Shown here piece by piece: positions 10,378 through 35,745 of a DNA stretch of 64,000 nucleotides. The DNA lies in IMG/VR virus record IMGVR_UViG_3300050821_006345, positions 1 to 64,000 of that record, one strand, 5' to 3'. A program made the position numbers and the translations under genes. The notes beneath the pieces are model-generated. The model saw only the letters and a program-made list of their open reading frames with translations. It was not told the DNA's origin and did not search any database. This DNA is from a virus. The first letter of the stretch is position 1, and each line of letters opens with the position of its first letter.

Positions 10378-10440
10378 GTTGCTCCGAGTCTTCCCCGCTG
10401 CAACTGTGGACAGCATGGACGAAGAACCGCTTGCCGTCAA
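10378..10440 (-). promoter_or_regulatory. Promoter plus 27-nt GAAGA leader hairpin (copy 1)
   Basis: TTGACG (10440-10435), 17 bp, CATGCT (10417-10412), 7 nt, then a hairpin at 10404-10378. Arms GUUGCAGCGGG and CUCGGAGCAAC enclose the loop GAAGA. Outer helix 5 bp, 2x2 purine internal loop (AG/GA), inner helix 4 bp. A 16-nt A-rich linker precedes the ATG at 10361. Same architecture as at 11707, 24071, 30199, 32418 and 35685. Confidence 0.8.
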
Positions 10441-10492
10441 CCGAAATAATCAAGAAAGACGTAAGTGTTTGACACTGAAACGAATGAAAACG

Positions 10493-11185
10493 CTAAAGAA
10501 GATAGCCTTGGCCGAGGCGATTGGCGATTTTCTCACAGTAATCTTTGGAAATTTCACTGCCGAGTGCTTTTTTACCAGCTTCCTTTGCCGCAGCAAGTGT
10601 TGACCCGCTTCCGGCGTAGGTGTCCACCACGGTCTCGCAAACATTGGTCAGGACAAACTCAAGCAAAAGGCTCTGGCTTTTTTCCGTGGGATGAAGTTGG
10701 GTCAAAGAACCGACGCGGTCTCGTTGAACGATGTCCTGCGGACGGCCTTTTGCCCACTTGTGGTTCTCCTTCGGCCAAAAAGCGCAAGCCTCCCACTGTT
10801 TCGCATAGGAGTGTTCGAGACTCCCTCCACTCCAGTTATTTTTCCACCAACCAATCAGTGAATCTGGCCGCAGGTCTTTCGGCCAATCAAAAAGGTTGTC
10901 CCACCGGCAGAACGCATAGGCCGCAACGTCTGAATTATTTACCAGCGTCCGGAGCGTCTCAAAGTCATAGGCATCGTCGCCGTGGATTGGATCGAAGGAA
11001 TTGATGCGGTGCCCGGATTTCCATTGGCAACCGTAAGGCGGATCGGTCAGAAGCACATTCCATTTCTTGACGTGCGGCAGAAGCAGTTTGCAATCGCAGT
11101 TAAAAAGCACCACAGAGCCGTCCTCGTAGAACGGAGCGATGCCGGGGTCGTCCTTGAAGAATGTGTCCATCCACCACTTGCTCAT
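10493..11185 (-). CDS. DNA methyltransferase (beta-class N4/N6 MTase)
   Basis: 230 residues. Motif IV TDPPYG (47-52) precedes motif I DTYAGSGSTLAAA near the C-terminus, the motif order of beta-class amino-methyltransferases. HPTEKS, the segment preceding motif I, is also present. It would transfer methyl from S-adenosylmethionine to adenine N6 or cytosine N4; DPPY fits both. No cognate nuclease is adjacent, so it is likely a solitary phage methylase for evading restriction or for regulation. The start ATG is at 11185. Confidence 0.9.
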   Translation of the reverse strand: MSKWWMDTFFKDDPGIAPFYEDGSVVLFNCDCKLLLPHVKKWNVLLTDPPYGCQWKSGHRINSFDPIHGDDAYDFETLRTLVNNSDVAAYAFCRWDNLFDWPKDLRPDSLIGWWKNNWSGGSLEHSYAKQWEACAFWPKENHKWAKGRPQDIVQRDRVGSLTQLHPTEKSQSLLLEFVLTNVCETVVDTYAGSGSTLAAAKEAGKKALGSEISKDYCEKIANRLGQGYLL

Positions 11186-11250
11186 GTGTCACAAACGATA
11201 GGAAAATAGAACTTGAAAGGCAAGGATTGATTCTGCACGATGGTCGGCCA

Positions 11251-11475
11251 ATGAAACAGAACCTATACGCCACGTCAGTCTCAATGGTTCGTGCTAATAA
11301 TCCTCAAAAGCACTTTGCCGGATACTTTGGTGCGGTCTCTGGCCAAGAGGCGATTGGAAAAGCCACTGAACGATGTCTGGCCGAAGTTAAAGACGGTGCG
11401 GTCAACGGAGCAATCGCCATTGAGGTTCCGCTTGATGAACTGAAGAAAATAATCGCCCAACACGAAACGCCATGA
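11251..11475 (+). CDS. Hypothetical protein (74 aa)
   Basis: MKQNLYATSVSMVRANNPQK, then VSGQEAIGKATERCLAEV and a C-terminal AIEVPLDELKKI. It resembles short phage proteins with an SxxxA-G-A helix, but I cannot name it. The ATG at 11251 is chosen over an upstream in-frame ATG because it begins at the conserved-looking part. ATGA overlap with the next gene. Confidence 0.6.
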   Translation: MKQNLYATSVSMVRANNPQKHFAGYFGAVSGQEAIGKATERCLAEVKDGAVNGAIAIEVPLDELKKIIAQHETP

Positions 11476-11690
11476 CCAAGACCATTGAAACAAAAGACGC
11501 GGTCGTCACCTACAGGTGCGATCAAGCAACCAAGGACGCTGTGTTTGAGCGTCTGGTTAAGTTCTTCGCCAACCACGAGGCGTTCTCCGGCGAGGCCATT
11601 TGCCAATGCGATGCGCCACAAATTGACTCCATTCAGACAATGGCCGAGATCGCTGACAACCTCATGGGATTTGAGATAACCGAAAAGTAG
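11472..11690 (+). CDS. Hypothetical protein (72 aa)
   Basis: MTKTIETKDAVVTYRCDQAT, acidic, helical. Start overlaps the preceding stop (ATGA). No recognised motif; two Cys (CQCDAP) are not arranged as a zinc site. Confidence 0.6.
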   Translation: MTKTIETKDAVVTYRCDQATKDAVFERLVKFFANHEAFSGEAICQCDAPQIDSIQTMAEIADNLMGFEITEK

Positions 11691-11706
11691 GCCGCGATTA
11701 TTCAAG

Positions 11707-11769
11707 TTGACAAGGTGGCCGATTCATGCTATCCTGTCCTCAATTGAAATGGCGAAGAGCCGAATCAAT
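11707..11769 (+). promoter_or_regulatory. Promoter plus 27-nt GAAGA leader hairpin (copy 2)
   Basis: TTGACA (11707-11712), 17 bp, TATCCT (11730-11735), 7 nt, hairpin 11743-11769 with arms AUUGAAAUGGC and GCCGAAUCAAU around GAAGA. Outer 5 bp perfect, inner helix 4 bp (one U-G), AA/AA internal loop. A 15-nt linker AGAAAGAAATAAAAT leads to the ATG at 11785. Confidence 0.85.
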
Positions 11770-11784
11770 AGAAAGAAATAAAAT

Positions 11785-12480
11785 ATGAAGCAAACGATTG
11801 GAAACGGTGTTCACTCAACCATAACGGTTGGCGATGTGATGCGGGTTAATGGCAATCTGCTTATTTGCTATAAATGGTCGGAAAGTTGTGCGGCGCTTCG
11901 GCCTTTGGCCAAACGCGTCCATGTCATCAAGCCTCGCGGGACGGACGCGCATGGCGACAAGGAAACCACGTTTGTCGCACCTGACATCCGAGTGGAACAC
12001 TTCAGCTCGATGACGCCGGGCCCGTTCGTGGCGCGCCTCGGCGACAACTGGCAGCAGGCCGACATCAAGACCGCTGTGCCGGGATTTGATGGCGAGCTAA
12101 ACGCGGTCGGCAAGACCAAGGTGGAGAAGGCCGTGGAAAAGCTGAAGAAGAAAACGCAGAAGCTCGCCACGGTCGCGCCGATGCCAGACGAAGCATTTGT
12201 TGCAGAAGTCGCATCTAAATTGAATCCTCCGCTGGCGAAGTTGGCAGAGAAGCTTTGGGATAAGCATCCGAACAATCCGAAGAATAAAAGCGACAAGCCG
12301 CAGGGCAAATGCGCCTTCATGCGAGCGATGCTGCTGGAGGCCAAATATACACGCAAGCAAATCATCGACGCAACGCTGGCCAAGTTCGGCGGCGAAGAAC
12401 TGGGAACCAGCCGCACGCTCTCCAGCCTGCCGAGCATCATGAAGAAGGATGGACTGGTTGGGAAATGGGTGGAGGCATGA
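11785..12480 (+). CDS. Hypothetical protein (231 aa) with C-terminal wHTH-like part
   Basis: Starts MKQTIGNGVHSTITVGDVMR. A central Lys-rich helix (KVEKAVEKLKKKTQK) is followed by a C-terminal part (FMRAMLLEAKYTRKQIIDAT, then SLPSIMKKDGLVGKW) that looks like a small winged helix. The end resembles phage proteins with 'R..L...YT..QI......F'. First gene of an operon with a hairpin leader. Function unknown; DNA binding is an inference. Confidence 0.65.
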   Translation: MKQTIGNGVHSTITVGDVMRVNGNLLICYKWSESCAALRPLAKRVHVIKPRGTDAHGDKETTFVAPDIRVEHFSSMTPGPFVARLGDNWQQADIKTAVPGFDGELNAVGKTKVEKAVEKLKKKTQKLATVAPMPDEAFVAEVASKLNPPLAKLAEKLWDKHPNNPKNKSDKPQGKCAFMRAMLLEAKYTRKQIIDATLAKFGGEELGTSRTLSSLPSIMKKDGLVGKWVEA

Positions 12481-12719
12481 GCGTCCACGGCCAAATTGAT
12501 TACGCACAGGTTGACGCTGCGATGCGAGAAGCCACGGAGAAATTCAATCGCAATCCAACGCTGCAAATACTTTTCAACAGGTCTAATTCGGCCTATCAAC
12601 ACTATCTTTCTAATGGCCGAAATAAAGATGACTGGCGTAAAAGCATCGGGGCCACAAGAAACCCGCACCGCTACGCTGAATACTGTAATGAGCTAGACGC
12701 GGAAGGGGTTGTGGTGTAG
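12477..12719 (+). CDS. Hypothetical protein (80 aa)
   Basis: MSVHGQIDYAQVDAAMREAT, helical, then ILFNRSNSAYQHYLSNGRN. ATGA overlap with the gene upstream sets the start at 12477. Not recognised. Confidence 0.6.
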   Translation: MSVHGQIDYAQVDAAMREATEKFNRNPTLQILFNRSNSAYQHYLSNGRNKDDWRKSIGATRNPHRYAEYCNELDAEGVVV

Positions 12720-12729
12720 ATTGGCCGAA

Positions 12730-13404
12730 ATGCCAGACGAACCAGTTTTAGCCGTAGCCACAACCACCGAGGATGATTCTCGCGGCCCAAGCGGGTCGCT
12801 GTTTCAAAGAACCGATGTTCAGCGGGCTGAAGACGATTCGCTGATTGCCGACCTAATCCAGAAGGGCGTTACCAACAAGCGCGAAATCTGGCGCAAGGTG
12901 AATGAGAAGAACTCTGGCCGCTACACGCTATCAGAGCAGACGGTCAAGAAGAACATGGCAATGATTGAAAAGCAATGGGCCAAGGTTCTCACTGGACGGA
13001 CACTTTCAGAATACAAGGCCAGCCAGTGGTGGAGGGCCGACCACCTGTTCACCGAGGCGATGGACGCTTGGGAGCGGAGCAAGCGCGAAGGCCAGACGAT
13101 GAGCGGTGCGGTGGGTGCGACTGGAGAGCCATCAGGAAGCCGGAGCGTGACAAAGACGAGACGAGATGGTGATCCCAGGTGGATTGAGGTCATGCTGAAG
13201 ATACTTGAGCGTCAGGCGAAGATTGTTGGCATCGATGCGCCGATTAAGCTTGAGGCGTCGGTCACTGGCGACACGAATAACCTTGAGGCATTGCGTCTGG
13301 CCTACCGTGAAAGAATCAAAGCCGAGGTCGTTTCTAACTTGCCTCGTCGACCAGAAAATGCCATAGTTGACGCAGTGGTGGTGGACAATAAGCCGCCGAA
13401 TTAA
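12730..13404 (+). CDS. Candidate terminase small subunit
   Basis: 224 residues from ATG 12730 (MPDEPVLAVATTTEDDSRG); a start 21 bp further upstream is possible. It has an HTH-like region (LIADLIQKGVTNKREIW...YTLSEQTVKKNMAMIEKQW, about 40-85). The C-terminal segment RDGDPRWIEVMLKILERQ followed by IVGIDAPIK is common in phage terminase small subunits and related proteins. It would bind packaging-initiation DNA for TerL. It is far from terL, so the call is tentative. Confidence 0.5.
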   Translation: MPDEPVLAVATTTEDDSRGPSGSLFQRTDVQRAEDDSLIADLIQKGVTNKREIWRKVNEKNSGRYTLSEQTVKKNMAMIEKQWAKVLTGRTLSEYKASQWWRADHLFTEAMDAWERSKREGQTMSGAVGATGEPSGSRSVTKTRRDGDPRWIEVMLKILERQAKIVGIDAPIKLEASVTGDTNNLEALRLAYRERIKAEVVSNLPRRPENAIVDAVVVDNKPPN

Positions 13405-13421
13405 AACGAAAGAATAACGAT

Positions 13422-13619
13422 ATGACAAAAGAACAAGAATCCGCACTGATTAAGTTTGGCGACAGTTATGATTGCGAGTGCTTTGAGTATTGGACGAATC
13501 CAGATGGAACTCCAAAACATGACGAAAACACGCAAGATGACCAATGCGGCAACGGATGCTTTGCTCCAGATGGAGTGTGCTGTCCAATTTGCAGCAAAAA
13601 TTATGCCAAACGAACTTGA
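13422..13619 (+). CDS. Cys-rich small protein
   Basis: 65 residues, MTKEQESALIKFGDSYDCEC. Six Cys including CGNGC and CCPIC suggest a zinc knuckle. Leader AAAGAATAACGATATG without Shine-Dalgarno. The 3' end overlaps the next gene by 17 bp. Confidence 0.6.
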   Translation: MTKEQESALIKFGDSYDCECFEYWTNPDGTPKHDENTQDDQCGNGCFAPDGVCCPICSKNYAKRT

Positions 13620-13761
13620 AAAAGAGCTTGCACTGAAAGGCATCGAAGAACTTTCAGACATTCACGCCACGCGACCTTGCGAACATATCGGGTCAATACA
13701 TGCGCGAATTAAGCGACTGGGAATGGATTTGTCAGAAATGCCACATGAAGAAGGATGGTAG
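13603..13761 (+). CDS. Small hypothetical protein (52 aa)
   Basis: MPNELEKELALKGIEELSDI, then RPCEHIGSIHARIKRLGMDL. Internal ATG at 13603 chosen because the frame above it is antisense-like low-quality sequence overlapping the Cys-rich gene. Confidence 0.5.
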   Translation: MPNELEKELALKGIEELSDIHATRPCEHIGSIHARIKRLGMDLSEMPHEEGW

Positions 13762-13794
13762 AATGGACAAGTTAATCAAAAGGAATCGAAAACC

Positions 13795-14064
13795 ATGAGT
13801 GGCGCTTGTTACCGTTGCGGCCAGCCCATTGAGGAAGGCCAGACCGAGTGCGATAACTGCACCAGAGGTATGCCGCCGGGCATGGCGCAAATGGGCGAGA
13901 TGCTGGCCGGTCTGAAGTTCGTCGAGATTGACTGGGACAAGATACGCTCACTTCCAGAGGCGGAGAGGACTGAAGCGATAATCACCATCGTCTCCACAGC
14001 CATTCCTGCGGTCGTCCGCAACTCGCCGCAATACTTTAAGATTTTGAAATATATTAAGACATGA
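13795..14064 (+). CDS. Zinc-ribbon protein (89 aa)
   Basis: N-terminal CYRCGQP...CDNC (residues 5-23) is a CxxC-x14-CxxC zinc ribbon. The rest (FVEIDWDKIRSLPEAERTEA...PAVVRNSP) is helical. Overlaps the next ATG by 4 bp. Function unknown. Confidence 0.7.
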   Translation: MSGACYRCGQPIEEGQTECDNCTRGMPPGMAQMGEMLAGLKFVEIDWDKIRSLPEAERTEAIITIVSTAIPAVVRNSPQYFKILKYIKT

Positions 14065-14468
14065 AAGTAACCAGATTGGCCGTTTTTGAAACGGTATCAT
14101 CCTCGCAACACTCTATAACTTTGTCCACCGGCGTTCCTTCTCGCGTGGATATGCTGCCGCGAAGCGACGATGGCTACCACATTTCAACCGGCGAGTTTGG
14201 ATGGGGAGTTGACCGATTCACCGATGCGTCGACCAAGGCTTCTTATTGCCTGACTGACAACAAAGAAAACCCAGAGCGGCTTCAGATGCTCCGTGAGACG
14301 CTGGAAGCTGAGGGCTTCGTCCCGCTTCACTTTGATGGCATGGACGACGGATATGTTGACCACCAAAGCGTCGGCACATCGGAAACTGCATTTGAGTCCA
14401 AGAGCAAGCTGCTGCGATTCATTTTCGATCCTCAATGCGTTTTGGAAATCAGCAACGACAACCTCTAA
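14061..14468 (+). CDS. Hypothetical protein (135 aa)
   Basis: MKVTRLAVFETVSSSQHSIT... beta-rich with a GYHISTGEFGWGVDRFTD segment. Immediately before a radical SAM gene with no gap, so possibly its partner. Not recognised. Confidence 0.6.
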   Translation: MKVTRLAVFETVSSSQHSITLSTGVPSRVDMLPRSDDGYHISTGEFGWGVDRFTDASTKASYCLTDNKENPERLQMLRETLEAEGFVPLHFDGMDDGYVDHQSVGTSETAFESKSKLLRFIFDPQCVLEISNDNL

Positions 14469-15341
14469 ATGCTCGCCCACTACACAACAGGAAACGTCAA
14501 GGTGACGCTGGCGTCGGACGGCACGTCCACGCGGGAGTGGCCGGATAATGAAAGGCCGCGACCAGAAAGTCCGTGTAGCGTGGATTTGAAGATTACGCAG
14601 CAATGCGATGGTGCAACAATTTGTAGGTGGTGCCATGAATCATCTCATCCGCGAGGAACACACGCGGACGCTGAAAGATTGATAAAAATTGTTGATGGAC
14701 TGCCGAATGGTGTTGAAATAGCCATTGGCGGTGGCAATACGTTCGCGCATCCGAGACTGCTTGATATTTTGGCCGCACTCTCAGATGGACTGATATGTAA
14801 TGTGACCGTTAATGCACAACACGTCGCCGCGAATCTTCAACTGATTAACTACTGTCGCAAGGAACACTTTATTCACGGACTTGGCATCTCATACATTCCA
14901 AAGTTTTTCAAAGACATGGTTTTGGCCACGGATTCCAACACCGTCATCCACTTCATTGCCGGAGTCCACAATGTCTGGGACGCAATTGAGTCTCCGTTTC
15001 CGAAGGTTCTCGTCCTTGGTTACAAGCACTTTGGATTTGGCGTAAAATACCACACCACTGCGGTGGACGATAATCTGAAGCAATGGCGGAACTGGGTGCA
15101 TCGGCTGTCAAAGAACCGGATCATCTCGTTCGACAATCTGGCCGTTGAGCAGCTTGGAATCAGAGAGCGCGTAACTGGGCTGGAATGGGAGAATCATTAT
15201 CTCGGAGACGATGGAGTGTTCTCAATGTATGTGGATGCCGTCAAAAATGAATACGCGGTGTCTTCAACGTCAGAACGAGTGCCAATGGGCGACCTGACGA
15301 TTAAAGAAGCATTTCAAGAGATGCGGAGGAACGCCGAGTGA
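14469..15341 (+). CDS. Radical SAM-like protein
   Basis: 290 residues. The segment SVDLKITQQCDGATICRWCHESS (about 38-60) carries Cys residues spaced C-x5-C-x2-C, followed by HPRGTHADAE. It aligns with the phage radical SAM proteins that read 'DLKITNYCD..C.(Y/W)CHEDS.P.G.HA'. The usual CxxxCxxC is stretched here. GVEIAIGGGN (about 80-89) fits the GGEP-type SAM motif. It would bind a 4Fe-4S cluster and cleave SAM to make a radical; the substrate is unknown. A second radical SAM enzyme lies at 16672. Confidence 0.7.
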   Translation: MLAHYTTGNVKVTLASDGTSTREWPDNERPRPESPCSVDLKITQQCDGATICRWCHESSHPRGTHADAERLIKIVDGLPNGVEIAIGGGNTFAHPRLLDILAALSDGLICNVTVNAQHVAANLQLINYCRKEHFIHGLGISYIPKFFKDMVLATDSNTVIHFIAGVHNVWDAIESPFPKVLVLGYKHFGFGVKYHTTAVDDNLKQWRNWVHRLSKNRIISFDNLAVEQLGIRERVTGLEWENHYLGDDGVFSMYVDAVKNEYAVSSTSERVPMGDLTIKEAFQEMRRNAE

Positions 15342-15475
15342 AAGATTTGCTTGGCCGAGAAAGAACCGTCGAGGAGGCGCGAGAGCTTGAAATCAAAGGC
15401 AAGAACTTTTGGAAGTTTCAACCTTCACTTGACGTGAATTGCAGATGGATACGGCTGTGGATTTGCCACGGCTAA
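15338..15475 (+). CDS. Short gene disrupted by the IS605-type insertion (candidate)
   Basis: GTG start overlapping the radical SAM stop (GTGA). It encodes MKDLLGRERTVEEARELEIK then KNFWKFQP before running into sequence antisense to tnpB, stopping at 15475. The first 29 residues look like genuine coding sequence and the remainder does not, so this may be the 5' stump of a gene split by the transposon. Confidence 0.4.
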   Translation: MKDLLGRERTVEEARELEIKGKNFWKFQPSLDVNCRWIRLWICHG

Positions 15476-16574
15476 TTACCTCCGCGTTTGGGTGATTGAA
15501 TGCACCCGAACCAAGAATGTCCAGCCCGCGAAGGCGGATGTTCTTGGCTCCGTTTTCGTCCGCACAGGACGCATGGCCGCAAAACAAACATTCAAACTCA
15601 TCGCGAGTCTTCCTGTTCTTTTTGTCGGTGTATCCGCACTTGCTGCACATCTGGCTGGTGTAACTTGGATCAACCTTGACCAATGGAACACCATTAAGCT
15701 CCGCCTTGTAGGATATGAATCCTCCAAGTTGCGCGAAGCTCCATCCATGCAGCGTCGCTCGCTCGCTCTTCCTAGCCTTTATCCGGTCGCGTATGCCAGT
15801 GAGTTCCTCAATGGCGATTGCACGTCCGGTGCATTTAGCGTTTTGAACGATTCGTTTGGAAATTGTATGATTCACGTCGCGGGCGAACCGTGACTCCTTA
15901 CCGCTTCTTTTCTTCAAGAGTCTCTTGGCAGACTTTGTGCCTTTCTTTTGCAGCTTGCGGCGCAGAGACTGGTTGCGGTGCAGAATTTTGTTCAGAGCGT
16001 TTCCACTGAACTTGTTTCCGTCGGAGTCCGCCGCGATTATCGCAATGCCGAAATCAACACCAAGCACATCGGTCGCCTTGATTTCCATCTCATCTGGCAG
16101 CGCGACGGCTACACTCAGAAACCACTTGCCATCCCGCCGAAGAACAAGGTCGGACTGCTTGATATCGCCTCTTTCTATGATTTCTTTCTGATAATCACCA
16201 CAAGCAAAAGGCATTCTTTCCCTTCCGCCCATTGTCCAAATTGAAACCTGATGTTTAGACATCAATATTTTCATATTGCGTGCATCAAAAGCAATGCTGC
16301 CAAGCGGCCTAAATTTTCGCTGCGTCTTCCTGTCCATCTTATAGGCATCGGCGACTTTTGAAAAAAGCCTTATGGTCGCCTCCGATCCAATTCCAAACCG
16401 CGAGCGAACCTCTCTGTAGAATCTTTTCTGAAGTTCAAACTGGTGGAAAACTCCGCATTCAAATCCCTGTTCAGAAGTCCAATCGGCGGCCTCATTGCAG
16501 GCAATCAGCGTATCGCGTAAGGCGAGCGACTGTTCCGCATTCGGCATCAGTTTCAACTGGACTGTAATCGTCAT
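15393..16574 (-). CDS. tnpB: IS605 OrfB / TnpB RNA-guided nuclease
   Basis: 393 residues from ATG 16574 (MTITVQLKLMPNAEQSLALR). TnpB proteins are RuvC-type nucleases guided by a transposon-end RNA. RuvC motifs: GVDFGIAI (first Asp), AIAIEELTG (Glu), ADENGAKNI (last Asp). The C4 zinc ribbon is CSKCGYTDKKNRKT...CLFCGH. All three acidic residues and four Cys are present, so it is likely active. The ATG is chosen because a near-perfect promoter ends 8 bp upstream; a longer frame reading through the promoter is unlikely. Confidence 0.9.
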   Translation of the reverse strand: MTITVQLKLMPNAEQSLALRDTLIACNEAADWTSEQGFECGVFHQFELQKRFYREVRSRFGIGSEATIRLFSKVADAYKMDRKTQRKFRPLGSIAFDARNMKILMSKHQVSIWTMGGRERMPFACGDYQKEIIERGDIKQSDLVLRRDGKWFLSVAVALPDEMEIKATDVLGVDFGIAIIAADSDGNKFSGNALNKILHRNQSLRRKLQKKGTKSAKRLLKKRSGKESRFARDVNHTISKRIVQNAKCTGRAIAIEELTGIRDRIKARKSERATLHGWSFAQLGGFISYKAELNGVPLVKVDPSYTSQMCSKCGYTDKKNRKTRDEFECLFCGHASCADENGAKNIRLRGLDILGSGAFNHPNAEVISRGKSTAVSICNSRQVKVETSKSSCL

Positions 16575-16581
16575 TTGTTCA

Positions 16582-16609
16582 AGTATAGAACGGAATCGGA
16601 TTCTGTCAA
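16582..16609 (-). promoter_or_regulatory. Strong tnpB promoter
   Basis: TTGACA (16609-16604), 16 bp, TATACT (16587-16582), close to the sigma70 consensus. Only 7 bp separate the -10 from the ATG at 16574, so the transcript would be leaderless or nearly so. Confidence 0.6.
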
Positions 16610-16671
16610 CTGCAACATTGTCATATATTGTGTTGATTGTATCACGGTTATTCTGCACATTATCAGGAGTT

Positions 16672-17697
16672 ATGAAAGATAAAATCATGAGCGCAAGAAC
16701 CACAATGGGCGGCAAGCCAGTATTTAATGTGCCTGGCAGAATCCTGAATCTGGACTCCGGATTCAAACACAAACTGCTTTGTGATGGGCCGACATTTAGT
16801 GCTGGAACAGCATGTCAGTATTCATGCTCGTTCTGCTATGTTCCTGCGGTGATGGCAAAGCTAGTGAGTGGAAAGTTTGACGCGAAACACGAGGACATCG
16901 TGATCCGCAGAGAGCGTGCAGTGGACACATTGCGAGGCCAACTGACTGATTCCAAAGGTCGGCCAAAGTATCTTGACCAGAACGATACTCGCGTGATTTA
17001 CGCTTCACCATTGGTGGACGTGGCATCCAACATGGAACTTGTGAACGAGACCATTGAGCTTTGCAACCTGATAGGAGAACTGACCAACTGGCAGATTCGG
17101 TTGTTGAGCAAGAGTAATTTGCTGCCAAAAATTGCAATGGGTGTTTCCGGCTATTATCAAAAACGAATCATCTACGGAGTCAGCACCGGGACTTTGGACA
17201 ACAAACTCGCGCAGGCGTTCGAGCAGGGCTGTCCGCTGGTAAGCAAGCGCATTGAATCGCTTCACTGGCTTCAAGACAACGGGTTCAGGACGTTCGGGAT
17301 GATTTGCCCGTCGCTGCCGCAGTCGCTTCCGGGATGCTCAACGGCAGAGGCATACGAGGATTTTGCTGGCGACATGGCCGAATCAATACGCGTCGACAGA
17401 TGTGAACACGTCTGGGCTGAAGTAATCAACCTTCGCGGCGAATCATTTACGCGCACTGAAAAAGCACTGCAAGATGCTGGCTATGGATCACTGGCTATGG
17501 AGTTGCGACGCGTAAGCCACGACAAAGACCAATGGGAAGAATATGCCAGATGCACGTTCTTGGCTCACACTCATTTTATTCCAAAAGAAAAACTTCGGTT
17601 CTTACAATACGTCAACAAAGACAACTTTGATTGGTGGAAGGAACGCGAGCCATTGGGCGCTGTGTTGCTTGGCAATATAACGCACACAGACGCATGA
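16672..17697 (+). CDS. Radical SAM enzyme, SPL/photolyase-related family
   Basis: 341 residues. TACQYSCSFCYVPAV (about residues 46-60) is the CxxxCxxC cluster motif with the aromatic Tyr after the last Cys. RVIYASPLVDVASNMELVNE and RLLSKSNLLPKI match the TIM-barrel pattern of the spore-photoproduct-lyase-like/Rv2578c group. It would make a 5'-deoxyadenosyl radical; substrate unknown, DNA repair or modification is possible. Start 16672 has a good AGGAG 3 bp upstream, unusual for this genome. Confidence 0.8.
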   Translation: MKDKIMSARTTMGGKPVFNVPGRILNLDSGFKHKLLCDGPTFSAGTACQYSCSFCYVPAVMAKLVSGKFDAKHEDIVIRRERAVDTLRGQLTDSKGRPKYLDQNDTRVIYASPLVDVASNMELVNETIELCNLIGELTNWQIRLLSKSNLLPKIAMGVSGYYQKRIIYGVSTGTLDNKLAQAFEQGCPLVSKRIESLHWLQDNGFRTFGMICPSLPQSLPGCSTAEAYEDFAGDMAESIRVDRCEHVWAEVINLRGESFTRTEKALQDAGYGSLAMELRRVSHDKDQWEEYARCTFLAHTHFIPKEKLRFLQYVNKDNFDWWKEREPLGAVLLGNITHTDA

Positions 17698-24074: not shown

Positions 24075-24133
24075 CTTTATTTCTGATTGTGCGATTCTGT
24101 CCTCAAGCCGAAACGGTGAAGAATCGGATTGGC
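24071..24133 (+). promoter_or_regulatory. Promoter plus 27-nt GAAGA leader hairpin (copy 3)
   Basis: TTGACT (24071-24076), 16 bp, GATTCT (24093-24098), 8 nt, hairpin 24107-24133 with arms GCCGAAACGGU and AUCGGAUUGGC around GAAGA. Outer 5 bp (one G-U), AA/GA internal loop, inner 4 bp (one G-U). A 14-nt linker precedes the ATG at 24148. Confidence 0.85.
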
Positions 24134-24147
24134 CAGAAAGAAATAAT

Positions 24148-24501
24148 ATGAAACTACAGATTGAAATTCCGGATGGTGTTGTTGAAAAGGTAATTCGCGG
24201 CATTATGGAAAACTTCCCAGAAGCTAGCAATGGATGCGCCTTAAGGTGTATTGGGTGGCAATACGAAACCATGAGCTTCGATTTTTATGATGATGAGGAG
24301 ACCAAGAGATACAATATCACCAACGCAACTCTGCTCGCTACCTTCCCACTTATATTCACCGACAAGTGGCCGAAGGGCTGCGCGCCTCCTCTGGCTTCAA
24401 ACAAATGGGAGCAGTGGGAAGAATGGCTTTGTAGGTGCGATGCAACCGATTTTGACGCTTTCGCGCAACTTGCCTGCTTGGGTGAAGTGATTTACGGATA
24501 A
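24148..24501 (+). CDS. Hypothetical protein (117 aa)
   Basis: MKLQIEIPDGVVEKVIRGIM..., then GWQYETMSFDFYDDEETKRY and C-terminal DFDAFAQLACLGEVIYG. Resembles phage hypothetical proteins with a 'D.D......Q.A.FGE..YG' ending. First gene after a hairpin leader. Function unknown. Confidence 0.65.
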   Translation: MKLQIEIPDGVVEKVIRGIMENFPEASNGCALRCIGWQYETMSFDFYDDEETKRYNITNATLLATFPLIFTDKWPKGCAPPLASNKWEQWEEWLCRCDATDFDAFAQLACLGEVIYG

Positions 24502-30168: not shown

Positions 30169-30197
30169 AAAGAATCTTCGCAATTCTTATTATTTCT
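30169..30197 (+). terminator. Possible weak terminator after 30074
   Basis: AAGAAT-7 nt-ATTCTT followed by ATTATTTC. The stem is AT-rich, so termination would be weak. The rest of 30075-30168 holds no gene that I can see. Confidence 0.3.
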
Positions 30198-30198
30198 C

Positions 30199-30262
30199 TT
30201 GACGGTTGGCGGCAAAACATGGAAAACTGTCTTCAGTGGCAAGGGTGAAGAATCCGAACCAC
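30199..30262 (+). promoter_or_regulatory. Promoter plus 27-nt GAAGA leader hairpin (copy 4)
   Basis: TTGACG (30199-30204), 18 bp, AAAACT (30223-30228), 7 nt, hairpin 30236-30262 with arms GUGGCAAGGGU and AUCCGAACCAC around GAAGA. Outer 4 bp, inner 4 bp (one G-U), purine internal loop. A 14-nt linker GAGAAAGATAAAAT leads to the ATG at 30277. Confidence 0.85.
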
Positions 30263-30276
30263 GAGAAAGATAAAAT

Positions 30277-30573
30277 ATGAAATCAAACGGAACAATTCAG
30301 TGTTGGAAATGTGGCGCATTTAACGAGTCTTCGCTTTGTCCTCATTGCCCCCCGACCACCAAGCCAATCGTGAAAGGCAGCATCGTAAAATATACCGACC
30401 AACATGGTGATGGCTGGTTTCGCGTATCGGCCATCATCGCCGGATCGGTCAATCTCAAGCAAATCTTCGGAAGCCACATTCTTCACAAGCGCGTTCCGCT
30501 GGCCGAGGTGGTCGAGGACGAGGCGGCGTGGTATAAGAACTGGCAGCAATCGGAAGCCTACCAATCAATGTAA
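30277..30573 (+). CDS. Zinc-ribbon protein with SH3-like part (98 aa)
   Basis: N-terminal CWKCGAFNESSLCPHC (9-24) is a zinc ribbon. The rest, IVKGSIVKYTDQHGDGWFRV then SHILHKRVPLAEVVED, looks like a KOW/SH3-like barrel. First gene of a rightward operon with a hairpin leader. Function unknown. Confidence 0.7.
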   Translation: MKSNGTIQCWKCGAFNESSLCPHCPPTTKPIVKGSIVKYTDQHGDGWFRVSAIIAGSVNLKQIFGSHILHKRVPLAEVVEDEAAWYKNWQQSEAYQSM

Positions 30574-30577
30574 ATTT

Positions 30578-30868: not shown

Positions 30869-31245
30869 GCAAAGAATTATTCAAAAACGACGAGGCCAAG
30901 ATTTCGTTTTGGGCTTGCGAAGATGGCGATGCAAAGCTTTTCGGCCAATGCGACGGAGTCGGGCCGGTATCAATCAAAATCAGTCCAGAGAACATGGACT
31001 CGCTTGCCCGCCAGTGGCTCGCGCACTCGGCCATCCGCGACGGCTACACGAAGGCGGAGCTGACTGCGGCCTTCGACAAGGTGAAGGACAAGACGCACTG
31101 GAAGAATCCCATCGACGCCACGATACCAGTCGCGGACGTGGACATCACGGCAAAGGCCAAGTTCTTCCGAAGTAGTCGTGCCGAAGATAAAAAAGTGATG
31201 ATGCACGTCACTGCGCCGGGTTATTATGCCGGGCCAGCGAATTGA
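30865..31245 (+). CDS. Hypothetical protein (126 aa)
   Basis: MSKELFKNDEAKISFWACED, then VSIKISPENMDSLARQWLAH. ATGA overlap upstream. No recognised domain. Confidence 0.6.
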   Translation: MSKELFKNDEAKISFWACEDGDAKLFGQCDGVGPVSIKISPENMDSLARQWLAHSAIRDGYTKAELTAAFDKVKDKTHWKNPIDATIPVADVDITAKAKFFRSSRAEDKKVMMHVTAPGYYAGPAN

Positions 31246-31295
31246 TGTTGACCACCGAACTAAAATTTAGCAAACTAACTAAAGAAAGAAACGAT

Positions 31296-31757
31296 ATGCC
31301 AAACGAAACGAACGAAAAACAGCTTTCAAAGATTGAGGCTGCCGCGCTTGCGAAGGCGGCACAGAAAATTGACGATGCCTCCACCGAATCAATCTCTGTC
31401 GGGAAACACGCCGGAATGATAACCGTTCGCGTGGCCTACGACCTGAACAAGGCTGAGGACTACGACACTGCGCCAACGGTGAACCTGCTCTCCAAGGCCG
31501 TGCTTGCCAAGGCACTGGTGATGAGCGGGATTCAGGCCGACAACTTCCTTGGTGCTTTACGGGATGCTGCGGTCGCTGCACTTCACGCGGGCGAGAAAGC
31601 CGCTGATATTCTGACTGAGGAAGATAGCAGAGTCTTGGCGAAGATGGACTCGCTGTTTGAAAGGGTCATCGCCGAGCTTCCGCGTCAGCCACGGGCTGGC
31701 TCAACCACCGGAAAGGTTCGGCTTGAGGTTGTTGATTCTGTTGTCTTGGCCGACTAA
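31296..31757 (+). CDS. Hypothetical protein (153 aa), helical
   Basis: Starts MPNETNEKQLSKIEAAALAK after the leader GAAAGAAACGATATG, the usual start context here. A TTG/ATG 54 bp upstream is less likely. Ala-rich helices follow. Not recognised. Confidence 0.6.
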   Translation: MPNETNEKQLSKIEAAALAKAAQKIDDASTESISVGKHAGMITVRVAYDLNKAEDYDTAPTVNLLSKAVLAKALVMSGIQADNFLGALRDAAVAALHAGEKAADILTEEDSRVLAKMDSLFERVIAELPRQPRAGSTTGKVRLEVVDSVVLAD

Positions 31758-31761
31758 ATCA

Positions 31762-32172
31762 ATGACGATTCGAGTGCCATTCGGCCTGTGGGCGAGAATA
31801 AAGTCGGAGGAAACCGGCTCCAGCAAGCCGGAACTCCGCACCCGTCTTCGGAAAAGAATGTTCATCGGCCACACGCCGGTCGTCCGCCAGAACCGCATCC
31901 GCGAGGTTATTATCAGCTGCAATCCCGCCGGGATCATGCGCTGGATGGACGTAAAAATGTCGGATGCTCTAAAACAGCGGGAGTGCGCCTGCGGCAGTCC
32001 AGGCATCATTAAAAACTCCGACCACACATGGACGTGCGCGGACTGCCAGATCAAGGAGTCAAAATACAGCCGATGCATCACATCGCTGGAACTGCGCCGG
32101 GAAAGAAACAAGCTTGAAAACGAAATTGAAGAAGCCAAAAGACTTCAAATCACTGCGCCAGATTGGAATTGA
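31762..32172 (+). CDS. Hypothetical protein with zinc ribbon (136 aa)
   Basis: Basic N-terminal half (VPFGLWARIKSEETGSSKPE, RTRLRKRMFIGHTPVVRQNR). C-terminal CACGSPGIIKNSDHTWTCAD followed by CQIK forms a CxC...CxxC zinc ribbon, then a coiled helix. Possibly nucleic-acid binding. Confidence 0.55.
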   Translation: MTIRVPFGLWARIKSEETGSSKPELRTRLRKRMFIGHTPVVRQNRIREVIISCNPAGIMRWMDVKMSDALKQRECACGSPGIIKNSDHTWTCADCQIKESKYSRCITSLELRRERNKLENEIEEAKRLQITAPDWN

Positions 32173-32500
32173 ACGTGGGTGGATTTCATCCGATCCACAA
32201 ATCCAGCGAAAAACCGATTCCCGCCACGGCCTGATCCGCCGCTACGTCCTGCATCTGGCAAAATCAATCCAATTCATGACGGTGGACGATCTGATGCCGT
32301 TGATGACTCGTCCGCAAGCCTACAGCGCGCTTCAGCAGGCCGTTAAATATGGTCAGATGAAGATTTATCAGAAAGGCAAGTCTGGGCCAACACCAAGAAG
32401 AACTTTATTTATTTCGGTTGACAATCAGGCGGTTTATGGCAGACTCTCCCTATCGCAGATGGCGAAGAGCCTGAAGCGAACTAAAGGCAAAATAATATGA
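32114..32500 (+). CDS. Hypothetical protein (128 aa), wHTH-like
   Basis: TTG start at 32114 or a later one near 32126. LIRRYVLHLAKSIQFMTVDD followed by LMPLMTRPQAYSALQQAVKY and GQMKIYQKGK reads as a winged helix. Its last 80 bp contain the next promoter and hairpin (32418-32479), so the same DNA is both coding and leader. Confidence 0.5.
   Translation: MKTKLKKPKDFKSLRQIGIERGWISSDPQIQRKTDSRHGLIRRYVLHLAKSIQFMTVDDLMPLMTRPQAYSALQQAVKYGQMKIYQKGKSGPTPRRTLFISVDNQAVYGRLSLSQMAKSLKRTKGKII
32418..32479 (+). promoter_or_regulatory. Promoter plus 27-nt GAAGA leader hairpin (copy 5)
   Basis: TTGACA (32418-32423), 16 bp, CAGACT (32440-32445), 7 nt, hairpin 32453-32479 with arms UCGCAGAUGGC and GCCUGAAGCGA around GAAGA. 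Outer 4 bp, GA/GA internal loop, inner 3 bp. A 17-nt linker leads to the ATG at 32497. It lies within the 3' part of the preceding gene. Confidence 0.8.
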
Positions 32501-33738
32501 ATGCGGAACTGATTCTTCGAGAAATATGCGCCCGATGGGATTTGGGCGTTGACCGCCTGTCTCGCGCCGAGGCGGTGCCAATCGAATCCAAGCGTCCAGA
32601 ATTCACCGAGCTTGCCGCGACAATTGGCCATGCCAAGCAGCTTCTGAACGGAGACTTTGATTATCTTGCACGACGGAATTCTGGACGCAAGAAGGCCGAC
32701 CTTTCTGGAGTGGACTGGAACAAGTCCAACCACCAGATTGCCGCCGAGACCGGACTTTGCTATGCTTCGGTTTGCGCCAAGCGGCCAGCAGACCGCAAGC
32801 CAATTGCGAAAGGGCTAAATCCAATTGACTGGAACGCCGTGGACTTTAAGCGCAGCGACCTTGACATTGCCGAGGAATTTGGAATATCTGGTGCAACGGT
32901 GCATAAAAACCGAGTCCGTCTCGGCCACCATTCTTCCACCAAACTGACCCGCCTCTTTGACTGGGCATCGGTTGACTGGTCAAAGAACAACGGAGAGATT
33001 GCCGCCGAACTTGGCACATCCATTAACAACGCCCGTAAATATCGGGCGAAAGCGGGTCGGAAGAATCCGTTTACAACGGATGCCAGCCGGCCACATCGGA
33101 AGGTGACCAAGGAGATGATTGAAACGGCCAACTGGCTGGAAGACCGAGACGTAGATATTTGCCAGCGGTGGGGCGTTACCAGAGAGCGCGTCCGTCAGCT
33201 GCGGATTGAGAACAAGAAGCCGGCGTGCATCTACAAAGATCGCCACGGTCTGCCAATGATGAAGGCAATTGCTGGCCTTCGCCATGAATTAACCGGCTTG
33301 GACTTGGCCGCCATCACCAACAGGCTGACTCCGGTGGTCGGAGCAATCCGGAGGCCTTCGCTTATCTCCGCGCTGAGATTCCTTGGAGTTGATTACGCAT
33401 CGAAAAAGATTCGGAATAAGCGCATGAAGTATCCGTATGATGATATGAATTGGGAATTGCCGAACTGCATTCTCAGCATTATTTATGACGCTCCAAAAAA
33501 TGTAATTGCCCGTGGCAGACATCTGAACTGCAAGCCTGCGCCGAATTGGACGATGGGCGGTGCATTTAACCGCAAGTTTGAAGACCGTGAATTTCAGGGG
33601 GCGGTCGCGCAGGAAATTTTGTTCGCCGAATCCAAAGGCTTCAATAACCGAATCGCCGCGAACGAATATCTGCTTGAAAGGAAGGCGGCGGCGGATGCTG
33701 TGGCAGAAAAACGCCGGCGAACCATCGCCGCATCATGA
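32497..33738 (+). CDS. Tandem helix-turn-helix protein
   Basis: 413 residues with repeated homeodomain-like units, each opening with a Val-Asp-(Trp/Phe) or similar: DWNKSNHQIAAETGLCYASV (about 71-90), DFKRSDLDIAEEFGISGATV (about 115-134) and DWSKNNGEIAAELGTSINNA (about 155-174). A fourth, DRDVDICQRWGVTRERVRQL (about 212-231), resembles a sigma-4-type HTH. The C-terminal 180 residues have LRFLGVDYASKKIRNKRM and no named domain. Several HTHs in a row suggest binding to a long or repeated DNA site. It heads an operon with a hairpin leader. Confidence 0.7.
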   Translation: MNAELILREICARWDLGVDRLSRAEAVPIESKRPEFTELAATIGHAKQLLNGDFDYLARRNSGRKKADLSGVDWNKSNHQIAAETGLCYASVCAKRPADRKPIAKGLNPIDWNAVDFKRSDLDIAEEFGISGATVHKNRVRLGHHSSTKLTRLFDWASVDWSKNNGEIAAELGTSINNARKYRAKAGRKNPFTTDASRPHRKVTKEMIETANWLEDRDVDICQRWGVTRERVRQLRIENKKPACIYKDRHGLPMMKAIAGLRHELTGLDLAAITNRLTPVVGAIRRPSLISALRFLGVDYASKKIRNKRMKYPYDDMNWELPNCILSIIYDAPKNVIARGRHLNCKPAPNWTMGGAFNRKFEDREFQGAVAQEILFAESKGFNNRIAANEYLLERKAAADAVAEKRRRTIAAS

Positions 33739-33968
33739 GCGAGAAGCGACACCTCTACGAGAAGCGGCAGAAGAAGCAGTTTGCCGAAATATGCGGCGCA
33801 ACTGGCAAGCGGATGTTCTCCACACACGAAGGCGCGCTGCTATTTGCCGGAAACATGAACGATCCACGTCGAGACACTCCGATGGAGTGGCGTGCATATC
33901 TTTGTAAATATTGCCAGGAATATCACCTCACAAGCCAGCCGTTAAGAACTTATGCAAGAGTCAATTAA
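33735..33968 (+). CDS. Small phage zinc protein (77 aa)
   Basis: MSEKRHLYEKRQKKQFAEIC, then RAYLCKYCQEYHLTSQ near the C-terminus, the CxxC...H pattern of a widespread small phage protein family of unknown role. ATGA overlap with the HTH gene. Confidence 0.65.
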   Translation: MSEKRHLYEKRQKKQFAEICGATGKRMFSTHEGALLFAGNMNDPRRDTPMEWRAYLCKYCQEYHLTSQPLRTYARVN

Positions 33969-34131
33969 ACAGCCAGGTGAACTGGAATTGCGGGCAATCC
34001 GCGACGCAGTATTTGAACATGGCTCCTCACAGGAGAACTGGGACGGGTGCATGGACAGCTGGATGCGTCCAGAGGAAACCAAGTGGCTTCAGGATGAATA
34101 CGCCAAGCTGAAGGCGAAGGAGGCCAAGTGA
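33952..34131 (+). CDS. Small hypothetical protein (59 aa)
   Basis: MQESIKQPGELELRAIRDAV, then FEHGSSQENWDGCMDSWMRP. Acidic, with a Lys-rich helical end. Overlaps the previous gene by 17 bp and the next by GTGA. Good coding character despite its size. Confidence 0.6.
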   Translation: MQESIKQPGELELRAIRDAVFEHGSSQENWDGCMDSWMRPEETKWLQDEYAKLKAKEAK

Positions 34132-34253
34132 AAAGCCCTAAAAAGTCATGGTTTATTGTGGCAATCAAGTCTGCCAAGTTTTCCTGCGACGACATCTGCC
34201 GCGATGCGAAGAAGGCTGGACTGACGCGGTGGTGCATCTGTGCCGAGCGATGA
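34128..34253 (+). CDS. Small Cys-containing protein (41 aa)
   Basis: GTG start coupled as GTGA: MKSPKKSWFIVAIKSAKFSC, then DDICRDAKKAGLTRWCICAE. Four Cys could bind zinc. Coupled to the next gene as ATGA. Confidence 0.5.
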   Translation: MKSPKKSWFIVAIKSAKFSCDDICRDAKKAGLTRWCICAER

Positions 34254-34492
34254 AGTGTTTAAGCCAGCGCGAATTGGACGAGTGTGTTGCGGCAATGAAA
34301 AATGCCGTGGCACGCGGAGATTATCCGGTTCGCCAGTTGCGGCAGGAAAAGTTAATCATAATGGACGCGAAACATTCAATGCAAAGAACCTGCATGCAGC
34401 GGCTGCGTGACTATCGTCGGTCAATTGGTCTAAACGCCCACGGTCTTCCCAAGAAGGATTTTAGGATTGGCCGTCCACGGAGGAAAACATAA
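34250..34492 (+). CDS. Hypothetical basic protein (80 aa)
   Basis: MKCLSQRELDECVAAMKNAV, then RQEKLIIMDAKHSMQRTCMQ and a basic C-terminus (RIGRPRRKT). ATG set by ATGA overlap. Possibly DNA binding. The stop overlaps the next ATG as TAATG. Confidence 0.6.
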   Translation: MKCLSQRELDECVAAMKNAVARGDYPVRQLRQEKLIIMDAKHSMQRTCMQRLRDYRRSIGLNAHGLPKKDFRIGRPRRKT

Positions 34493-34848
34493 TGGCCTGC
34501 CGATACTGCATTGACGTTCCTTCTGGCCAGTATTGCGATGGTTGCGGCCAGCTTGTCGTTAAGAATCACGGCCAGCACCAGATATTTCCACAGGACTCGT
34601 CGCGGTTTGGCCAGTCTCTTGGCGAGTATGATTTAACAAATCCAGAAAATTTAAGACGGCTTATGGTTCACGAACCAACGCTTCATGCCGTGCCGAATTC
34701 GATGAGATGCCAAGAAACCGCCCCAAGACGGAACGAGCCAAGTTATGGCCTTCGATGTGCGTTTCATCGCGACCATTCTGGGCCACATTGCACCAACGCA
34801 AATACGGCAGACCACTCAAGGCAGACGTGGGAAGAAGTGCCGTTTTAA
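34492..34848 (+). CDS. CxYCxDVP zinc-ribbon family protein
   Basis: 118 residues. N-terminal CRYCIDVPSGQYCDGCG (3-19) is the family signature. A second metal-like motif, CAFHRDHSGPHC (about 89-100), resembles the C-x3-GHxGxH motif of the 35074 and 38144 proteins. The middle is unassigned. Paralogues: 35074, 38144, 41693, 62998 and the broken 39755. Function unknown. Confidence 0.75.
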   Translation: MACRYCIDVPSGQYCDGCGQLVVKNHGQHQIFPQDSSRFGQSLGEYDLTNPENLRRLMVHEPTLHAVPNSMRCQETAPRRNEPSYGLRCAFHRDHSGPHCTNANTADHSRQTWEEVPF

Positions 34849-35073
34849 TAGATGTTGAATAGGCACTGAATATGCTGTGAATATGTTTTACAACAAACAT
34901 GGCTTGGCAGACACGAGACGTCAGTCCGTTTTCATTGGCGATTTATGAATTGGCGATTATTGCTTGTAAATCTTATGCACGGCTTATTCACAGCTTATTA
35001 AACTTCTGTTCAAATTTTCCACTTCTTATTTCGTTGAATTTCGGCCACAGAAAACGCATCATGTTTCATTGAT
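34849..35073. other. AT-rich intergenic region with DnaA-box-like sites
   Basis: No gene. It has TTATTCACA at 34984-34992, a match to TTATNCACA, and a looser reverse site TGTGAATAT near 34876, in a strongly AT-rich stretch with several TTATT words. Candidate replication origin or promoter region for the 35074 gene; no good -35/-10 pair was found. Confidence 0.4.
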
Positions 35074-35667
35074 ATGTCCTGCAAATATTGTTCCGATGTC
35101 CCGCTTGGCGCGTTCTGCGATGAATGCGGAGAGAAGCGGTCGTCTCCACTTATTGGCGATTCAATTGTTGGCCGACTTAATCCAAATTTAAGTCCGTGCG
35201 GCGGACATCGGGCATGTCTGGCGTTTGGCAACAGTGCTATTTACGACAATGATGAAAGAATGTGCCGCGACCATTCTGAAGGATACATTTGCACGCTTCC
35301 GGTCGGCCATAACGGAAATCATGTAGGATGCTCACGAGTCCGTCACAATAATCATTCATGGCCGAGAGTCGAAGCCATTGATAATCTCGACCGCGAGATA
35401 CGAAGATACAACGATGGATTGCCAGTGCGCGGAAATGGCCGATGCCAAGCTACGACCGCGAGTGGAATGATCTGCACCAGAACAGCCGAACACGACGGAA
35501 GCCATGCGTTCGCTTGGCCAGCAACGGCGGAGAATGTTCTGCGCGAACCACAACATCGGTGTCTGGCCGTTCACGCCGGTTCTGGAATGCAGTGCATCTT
35601 TGCACCGGGACACGAAGATTATCACCGAGTGGTTACGCCAGATGGCTCGGATTGGAGATGGCGTTAA
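35074..35667 (+). CDS. CxYCxDVP zinc-ribbon protein with C-x3-GHxGxH repeats
   Basis: 197 residues. Residues 3-19 are CKYCSDVPLGAFCDECG. It then has repeats of a Cys-x3-(G/E)H-(N/D)-G-(N/S)-H unit: CTLPVGHNGNH, CTRTAEHDGSH and CIFAPGHEDYH, each preceded by CxA or Cys 8-10 residues earlier. Such units likely coordinate zinc one by one. The repeats make this the largest member of the family in the window. Confidence 0.75.
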   Translation: MSCKYCSDVPLGAFCDECGEKRSSPLIGDSIVGRLNPNLSPCGGHRACLAFGNSAIYDNDERMCRDHSEGYICTLPVGHNGNHVGCSRVRHNNHSWPRVEAIDNLDREIRRYNDGLPVRGNGRCQATTASGMICTRTAEHDGSHAFAWPATAENVLREPQHRCLAVHAGSGMQCIFAPGHEDYHRVVTPDGSDWRWR

Positions 35668-35684
35668 ATAGTTGATTATTCAAG

Positions 35685-35745
35685 TTGACAATAAGCGGCC
35701 ATAGTGTATTCTGTTGGTAGCTGGACGCTGAAGAGGCGGAAGGCG
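35685..35745 (+). promoter_or_regulatory. Promoter plus 27-nt GAAGA leader hairpin (copy 6)
   Basis: TTGACA (35685-35690) with ATTCAAG extension, 16 bp, TATTCT (35707-35712), 6-7 nt, hairpin 35719-35745 with arms AGCUGGACGCU and GGCGGAAGGCG around GAAGA. Inner helix 4 bp, GA/GA-type internal loop, outer helix only 3 bp. A 14-nt linker leads to the ATG at 35760. The least perfect copy, but the loop and spacing are kept. Confidence 0.8.

What the first reader, a model, noticed from the sequence alone, without database searches (positions are those of the whole stretch)
10378..35745. Six operons share a 27-nt 5'-leader hairpin with invariant GAAGA loop and covarying arms
At 10404-10378 (minus) and, on plus, 11743-11769, 24107-24133, 30236-30262, 32453-32479 and 35719-35745. 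Each is 27 nt: two 11-nt arms around GAAGA. Arms: AUUGAAAUGGC/GCCGAAUCAAU, GCCGAAACGGU/AUCGGAUUGGC, GUGGCAAGGGU/AUCCGAACCAC, UCGCAGAUGGC/GCCUGAAGCGA, AGCUGGACGCU/GGCGGAAGGCG, GUUGCAGCGGG/CUCGGAGCAAC. Outer helix 3-5 bp, inner helix 3-4 bp, both with compensatory changes; between them a 2x2 purine loop (AA/GA/AG opposite GA or AA, consistent with tandem sheared G-A pairs). Distance from the -10 is 6-8 nt and to the ATG 14-17 nt, so the hairpin sits at or next to the mRNA 5' end, followed by an AGAAAGAAATAAAAT-type linker. I know no named RNA family of this form; it may stabilise mRNA, enhance translation or bind a phage or host protein.
Basis: partly seen in the sequence, partly recalled or inferred. 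Interest (0 to 1): 0.92.

Follow-up and report, generated by a model that had tools for sequence, protein, structure and literature searches.

The report
Repeated hairpin at phage mRNA starts
A phage of (very likely) Verrucomicrobiota bacteria puts the same small, well-defined RNA hairpin at the very start of seven of its messenger RNAs, a new RNA family that probably lets one RNA-binding protein control all seven operons together; the hairpin is real, but what binds it and what it does are still inferred.

Summary
The stems covary: 54 of 56 stem cells pair, 19 with changes on both sides (shuffled mean 6.3). Outer-stem sequence is randomised (27% identity) while the GAAGA pentaloop is invariant in 7 of 7. 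Departures are strand-specific (8 G-U, 0 A-C), so the mRNA is what folds. Spacing is fixed on both sides: 34-37 nt from TTGAC, 41-44 nt from hairpin start to ATG. Other promoters of the same class in this phage lack the hairpin, so it marks a subset of operons. No Rfam family matches. No genuine copy turned up in 63 related phage records, or in 289 (covariance model) and 388 (pattern) Verrucomicrobiota genomes; Verrucomicrobiota is the likely host phylum. GAAGA is the lambda boxB (GNRNA) loop, but boxA is absent, the closing pair is not conserved and there is an extra purine internal loop, so it is not a nut site. Best reading: a new leader-RNA family that serves as a protein operator, probably post-transcriptional. 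Rivals: passive 5'-end stabiliser, or N-like antitermination.

The parts
10378..10404 (-). Leader hairpin 1: GUUGCAGCGGG GAAGA CUCGGAGCAAC
   Evidence: 32.7 bits
10412..10449 (-). Promoter of hairpin 1: TTATTTCGG-TTGAC ... CATGCT
   Evidence: consensus match
10362..10377 (-). A-rich linker to ATG at 10361 (gene 10053-10361, 102 aa, unknown function)
11743..11769 (+). Leader hairpin 2: AUUGAAAUGGC GAAGA GCCGAAUCAAU
   Evidence: 31.6 bits
11698..11735 (+). Promoter of hairpin 2: TTATTCAAG-TTGACA ... TATCCT
11770..11784 (+). A-rich linker AGAAAGAAATAAAAT to ATG at 11785 (gene 11785-12480, 231 aa, unknown)
24107..24133 (+). Leader hairpin 3: GCCGAAACGGU GAAGA AUCGGAUUGGC
   Evidence: 35.5 bits
24062..24098 (+). 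Promoter of hairpin 3: TTATTCAAG-TTGAC ... GATTCT
24134..24147 (+). A-rich linker to ATG at 24148 (gene 24148-24501, 117 aa, phrog_2355, unknown)
30236..30262 (+). Leader hairpin 4: GUGGCAAGGGU GAAGA AUCCGAACCAC
   Evidence: 36.7 bits
30190..30228 (+). Promoter of hairpin 4: TTATTTCTC-TTGAC ... AAAACT
30263..30276 (+). A-rich linker to ATG at 30277 (gene 30277-30573, 98 aa; homologue in relative G304 has no hairpin)
32453..32479 (+). Leader hairpin 5: UCGCAGAUGGC GAAGA GCCUGAAGCGA (competing fold predicted); lies inside the 3' end of ORF 32126-32500
   Evidence: 33.3 bits
32409..32445 (+). Promoter of hairpin 5: TTATTTCGG-type -TTGACA ... CAGACT
32480..32496 (+). Divergent linker ACTAAAGGCAAAATAAT to ATG at 32497 (gene 32497-33738, 413 aa, weak HTH matches)
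35719..35745 (+). Leader hairpin 6: AGCUGGACGCU GAAGA GGCGGAAGGCG
   Evidence: 29.0 bits
35676..35712 (+). Promoter of hairpin 6: TTATTCAAG-TTGACA ... TATTCT
35746..35759 (+). A-rich linker to ATG at 35760 (ORF 35760-35933, 57 aa, phrog_36569, unknown)
36893..37042 (+). Speculative partner: 49-aa basic ORF MNNNTKNRKRLERKDAKF..., in register with lambda N residues 1-18; downstream of hairpin 6, beyond a minus-strand ORF call
   Evidence: P = 0.02 in the N-terminal register (post hoc), P = 0.56 position-free; no family or PDB match

Best explanation
Seven operons of a (very likely) Verrucomicrobiota phage carry one new family of 5'-leader RNA element: a 27-nt hairpin starting within about two bases of the predicted transcription start, with two covarying helices, a purine internal loop and an invariant GNRNA-type GAAGA pentaloop, followed by a 14-17 nt A-rich single-stranded ribosome landing site without a Shine-Dalgarno. 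I infer that it is an operator for one trans-acting RNA-binding protein, more likely phage- than host-encoded, which reads the pentaloop and purine loop while the stem only presents them. Binding 14-17 nt upstream of the AUG, at the edge of the initiating 30S footprint and on the mRNA 5' end, would control translation and/or 5'-end decay of the seven operons together; the commonest precedent is timed shut-off of a gene set, as with T4 RegA. Shown: structure, covariation, strand, position, restriction to a subset of promoters. Inferred: the protein, the step it acts on, and its sign.
For: Loop invariant in 7/7 while the outer stem is at random identity (27%) yet paired. G-U but never A-C departures: the transcript folds. 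Hairpin-ATG distance 41-44 nt in all copies. Predicted leader fold leaves linker and AUG side open in six of seven. Same-class promoters without the hairpin exist in the same phage, so it is not a general feature of its transcripts. GNRNA pentaloops, and GAAGA in particular, are read by a protein (lambda N) in a known case (PMC12027372). Phages do control sets of mRNAs post-transcriptionally: RegA acts on about 30 T4 mRNAs and gp43 binds a leader hairpin with a conserved loop (PMC3014915).
Against: No binding protein identified: the only candidate is weak. No orthologous copies in relatives, so no conservation across phages. The linker lies between hairpin and AUG, so a repressor would act only at the edge of the ribosome footprint. 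Transcription starts are predicted, not mapped.
Confidence: 0.5

Rival explanations
1. Passive 5'-terminal mRNA stabiliser or translation booster: the hairpin blocks 5'-end-dependent decay (RppH/RNase E or RNase J type) and keeps the A-rich landing site open, without any dedicated protein.
For: Position at the predicted 5' end, stable fold and open linker. 5'-terminal stem-loops are known to stabilise bacterial mRNAs (Emory, Bouvet and Belasco 1992; papA, ompA, aprE leaders; cited in PMC3997798).
Against: Such hairpins need only a stem: an invariant five-base loop and a kept purine internal loop on otherwise randomised stems are unexplained. GAAGA is not one of the extra-stable tetraloops (own knowledge).
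Confidence: 0.24
2. N-like antitermination: the hairpin is a boxB-like site at +1, bound by an arginine-rich-motif protein that modifies RNA polymerase so that it reads through downstream terminators.
For: GAAGA is the wild-type lambda boxB loop and fits the GNRNA rule. Arginine-rich-motif proteins bind boxB through their N-terminus (PMC5386594). A 49-aa basic ORF aligns in register with lambda N 1-18. Some operons are long (8 same-strand genes after hairpins 2 and 7).
Against: No boxA above chance and no room 5' of the hairpin. Closing pair U-A in only 3 of 7, although lambda N needs it. No excess of intrinsic terminators in 10-46 kb. Fixed distance to the ATG is not needed for antitermination. 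Hairpins 5 and 6 sit only about 3 kb apart. The ORF match is post hoc.
Confidence: 0.15
3. Recognition by RNA or a small molecule: the pentaloop pairs with a phage or host RNA, or the leader is a tiny riboswitch.
For: An invariant loop could also be kept by pairing; leader position fits.
Against: No expression platform (no alternative fold shared by the copies, no terminator), and 27 nt is small for a ligand pocket; first genes share no pathway.
Confidence: 0.06
4. DNA-level element: a dyad operator or initial-transcribed-region signal read as double-stranded DNA.
For: It lies immediately downstream of the promoter at fixed distance.
Against: Arm sequences vary freely and only their pairing is kept. 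Departures are G-U only and never A-C, which points to the transcribed RNA strand.
Confidence: 0.03

Closest known systems
lambda nut-site boxB hairpin (target of N and HK022 Nun)
   Same: Small hairpin near the start of early phage transcripts with a GAAGA (GNRNA) pentaloop (PMC12027372; PMC5386594).
   Different: No boxA, closing pair variable, purine internal loop four pairs below the loop, starts at about +1, fixed distance to the ATG, seven copies in one genome; no N homologue found.
T4 gp43 translational operator hairpin and T4 RegA operators
   Same: Phage leader sites through which one protein controls translation; the gp43 operator hairpin has a conserved loop; RegA acts on about 30 mRNAs, so a gene-set regulon has precedent (PMC3014915).
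   Different: gp43 operator has a UAAC loop and serves one gene; RegA sites are unstructured A+U-rich sequence overlapping or next to the AUG; here the site is a structured hairpin ending 14-17 nt upstream.
5'-terminal stabilising stem-loops (ompA, papA, aprE leaders)
   Same: Hairpin at the mRNA 5' end with a single-stranded ribosome landing site behind it (references in PMC3997798).
   Different: Those are individual leaders without a shared invariant loop; here seven leaders share loop and internal loop while stems change.
ANTAR-protein target hairpins
   Same: Protein-read loops on variable stems in leader RNA (PMC3369931, listed).
   Different: From my own knowledge ANTAR sites are paired hairpins with six-base loops that overlap a terminator; here there is one hairpin, a five-base loop and no terminator.

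Membership tests
lambda-type nut site / boxB | GNRNA pentaloop on a short stem | tested here: met
   GAAGA in 7 of 7, four-pair inner stem
lambda-type nut site / boxB | U-A loop-closing pair needed by lambda N | tested here: not met
   UA 3, CG 2, GC 1, UG 1
lambda-type nut site / boxB | boxA element accompanying boxB | tested here: not met
   Best 8-base boxA core match 4-6 of 8 in all leaders, as in random stretches; no transcript 5' of the hairpin
lambda-type nut site / boxB | Cognate N-like arginine-rich-motif protein in the phage | tested here: inconclusive
   49-aa ORF 36893-37042: P = 0.02 in the N-terminal register, P = 0.56 position-free, no family or PDB match
lambda-type nut site / boxB | Terminators downstream to be read through | tested here: inconclusive
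   Intrinsic-terminator-like sites not above shuffles (23 vs 21.1; 26 vs 22.2); Rho-dependent sites not testable
Any Rfam 15 family | Match at the family's gathering score | tested here: not met
   None in the window; nothing relevant at E <= 10 around hairpin 4
5'-terminal stabilising stem-loop | Hairpin within a few nucleotides of the mRNA 5' end | tested here: inconclusive
   Predicted start within about two bases, from promoter consensus only; starts not mapped
5'-terminal stabilising stem-loop | Longer mRNA half-life conferred by the hairpin | not testable with these tools
   Needs decay measurements
Protein-bound translational operator | Structure conserved with invariant unpaired bases | tested here: met
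Protein-bound translational operator | Site overlaps or abuts the ribosome binding region | tested here: inconclusive
   Ends 14-17 nt upstream of the ATG in all seven, at the edge of the usual 30S footprint (own knowledge)
Protein-bound translational operator | Specific binding protein | not testable with these tools
   Needs pull-down or binding assay

The most novel reading that the evidence does not exclude
A phage-encoded RNA-binding protein of a new type coordinates seven operons at the RNA level through a +1 leader hairpin that combines a boxB-like GNRNA loop with a purine internal loop: a post-transcriptional regulon in a phage of Shine-Dalgarno-scarce Verrucomicrobiota.
Probability: 0.4. 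Interest if true: 0.8.

Novelty: new variant of a known kind. Interest (0 to 1): 0.6.

Why it matters
Phage regulons are usually defined by promoters and transcription factors. Here one RNA structure marks a subset of operons that share a promoter class with operons lacking it, which would be an RNA-level regulon. It lies in a phage of a little-studied phylum in which translation often does not rely on Shine-Dalgarno pairing, so it also bears on how such mRNAs are started and protected. If the cognate protein is found it would add a protein-RNA pair beside lambda N-boxB and MS2 coat-operator, which are widely used tools.

Tried and rejected
Covariance-model hits in Verrucomicrobiota genomes (up to 28.8 bits) had no promoter-leader context on inspection and were judged chance. 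Two pattern hits in 388 genomes do not exceed the reversed-pattern control (three). Hits in records related by head protein had no promoter-leader context; the best lies inside the head-protein gene. TerL, DnaB and two first-gene queries gave no or only distant relatives. A DNA operator was rejected because departures are G-U only and the arms vary freely. A restriction/methylation reason for GAAGA (the MboII site, own knowledge) was dropped: GAAGA is not rare in the genome (399 sites) and it would not explain the stems. ANTAR-type and kink-turn readings do not fit the loop size or the lack of a bulge. Widespread terminators needing antitermination are not supported. A first run of the lambda N comparison timed out and was redone.
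Full report
1. Observation. All six 27-nt elements are present as described. The window is bases 1-64000 of a 132,191-bp IMG/VR virus record, G000. Scanning the rest of the record with a criterion taken from the six (GAAGA with paired arms) found one more leader-type copy, at 125258-125232 on the minus strand, GCGTCGAGGGT GAAGA ATCCGAAACGC, again between a TTATT..TTGAC..CATCCT promoter and a GGAAAGAAAATAACGATATG linker.

2. More than chance. On the ungapped seven-sequence alignment, 96.4% of stem cells are standard pairs (shuffled mean 61%), 7 of 8 pairs show changes on both sides, and 19 cells carry double changes (shuffled mean 6.3); the covariation score is 1.07 against 0.30, with 0 of 500 shuffles reaching it, and slid pairings fall to 29-43%. 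The outer stem has 27% pairwise identity, that of unrelated sequence, yet 27 of 28 of its cells pair; the loop is 100% identical and the purine core 71%. Recent duplication therefore cannot explain the invariant loop. Of 56 stem cells, 8 are G-U and none A-C, so the folded molecule is the transcript. The canonical fold is the minimum-energy structure in six of seven leaders, and in those the linker stays single-stranded. A covariance model finds exactly these seven in the genome (E <= 1.4e-5), with the next hit at E = 0.16; it was built from the same seven, so this shows specificity rather than independent confirmation.

3. Anatomy. Distances are fixed on both sides: from the first T of TTGAC to the hairpin start 34-37 nt, from hairpin start to ATG 41-44 nt, from hairpin end to ATG 14-17 nt. 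With the -10 hexamer ending 6-8 nt before the hairpin, transcription should start within about two bases of it (inference from the promoter consensus). The internal loop is purine against purine, with A at alignment column 22 in all copies; a strict tandem G-A occurs in three of seven. The linker is AGAAAGAAATAAAAT-like in six and divergent in 32453. A census of TTGAC..NANNNT sites before genes shows further promoters of the same class in this phage (for example at 930-, 4590-, 10044-, 93549-, 108448-, 117289-, 119374-, 126679-) whose short leaders lack the hairpin. The hairpin thus marks a subset of operons. The first genes are mostly small proteins of unknown function.

4. Context. The major head protein (G000:86027-86929, phrog_1005) is 55-71% identical to proteins on nine viral contigs, and an alignment of these found 63 related loci. 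The same alignment matches 28 of 388 Verrucomicrobiota genomes at E <= 1e-10, many at E < 1e-100, and 0 of 149 Planctomycetota genomes, so the host is very likely in Verrucomicrobiota (inference; only these two phyla were tested). The phage shows no Shine-Dalgarno enrichment before its genes, which fits the report that some members of that phylum are Shine-Dalgarno-scarce (PMC10783764).

5. Distribution. No genuine copy was found in the 15 related phage records examined first, in 48 further related records, in 289 Verrucomicrobiota genomes by model, in 388 by pattern (two hits against three in the reversed control) or in 17 genomes of one order. The model does find all seven in G000 under the same search (positive control). 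In the largest relative, G304 (105 kb), promoters look similar but leaders are unstructured ACACCAAACACC-type repeats, and the homologue of the hairpin-4 gene starts a few bases after its promoter.

6. Mechanism. The loop is constant while the stem sequence is free, which is the signature of a site read at its loops, most simply by a protein. GAAGA is a GNRNA pentaloop, the class preferred by lambda N, and is the wild-type boxB loop (PMC12027372). Membership of the nut/boxB family fails: no boxA, closing pair U-A in only three of seven, an added internal loop, and a fixed distance to the ATG that antitermination would not need. A 49-aa ORF, MNNNTKNRKRLERKDAKF..., lines up in register with lambda N residues 1-18 (lambda, P22 and phi21 N sequences taken from own knowledge) and scores best of all called genes at that register (P = 0.02 against shuffled proteins), but the comparison is post hoc and the position-free version is not significant (P = 0.56). 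It is a lead, not evidence. The element works like a protein operator in a leader, as in T4 gp43 or RegA control (PMC3014915), and I put translational or 5'-end-decay control by one protein first. A passive 5' stabiliser is the main rival, because such stem-loops are known; it leaves the invariant loop unexplained.

7. Verdict. Observation confirmed and extended; function inferred. A new RNA family, so far restricted to one phage, with no Rfam match. Known kind: a leader hairpin acting as a regulatory site. New: its +1 position, composite loop architecture, seven-operon spread and host phylum.

Noticed in passing
L306-L311 (relative G304, 105 kb), for example promoters at 12325-, 5875-: Several leaders of this relative consist of ACACCAAACACCAAACACT repeats before the ATG: another lineage-specific leader type where the window phage has the hairpin or an AACAATAACGATATG linker.
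   Followed up: partly
L313 (relative G305), promoter near 15837 (minus strand, offset on the reversed sequence): A leader starts with a different 8-bp hairpin (CGGTTGAA ACAG TTCAACCG), so 5'-terminal hairpins may recur in this clade with other loops.
   Followed up: no
940-3669 (minus): Terminase large subunit of 909 aa whose homology is split (about 14-224 and 650-884) around a stretch of about 430 aa absent from other terminases; probably an intein.
   Followed up: no
15393-16772 (minus): IS605/TnpB-like transposase gene inside the phage (phrog_506); no guide-RNA search was made.
   Followed up: no
G000:86027-86929 (outside the window): Head-protein family present in 28 of 388 Verrucomicrobiota genomes, up to four copies in one genome, and in none of 149 Planctomycetota: a widespread prophage group of that phylum.
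   Followed up: partly
12730-13404 (plus): Matches a PHROG labelled 'RNase E' (phrog_645), but homologues in relatives G304 and G305 lie next to the terminase large subunit gene, so it may be a small terminase; the label looks doubtful.
   Followed up: no
1-60: The record starts with a tandem repeat of a 12-base unit (CAAGTTCGACNC).
   Followed up: no
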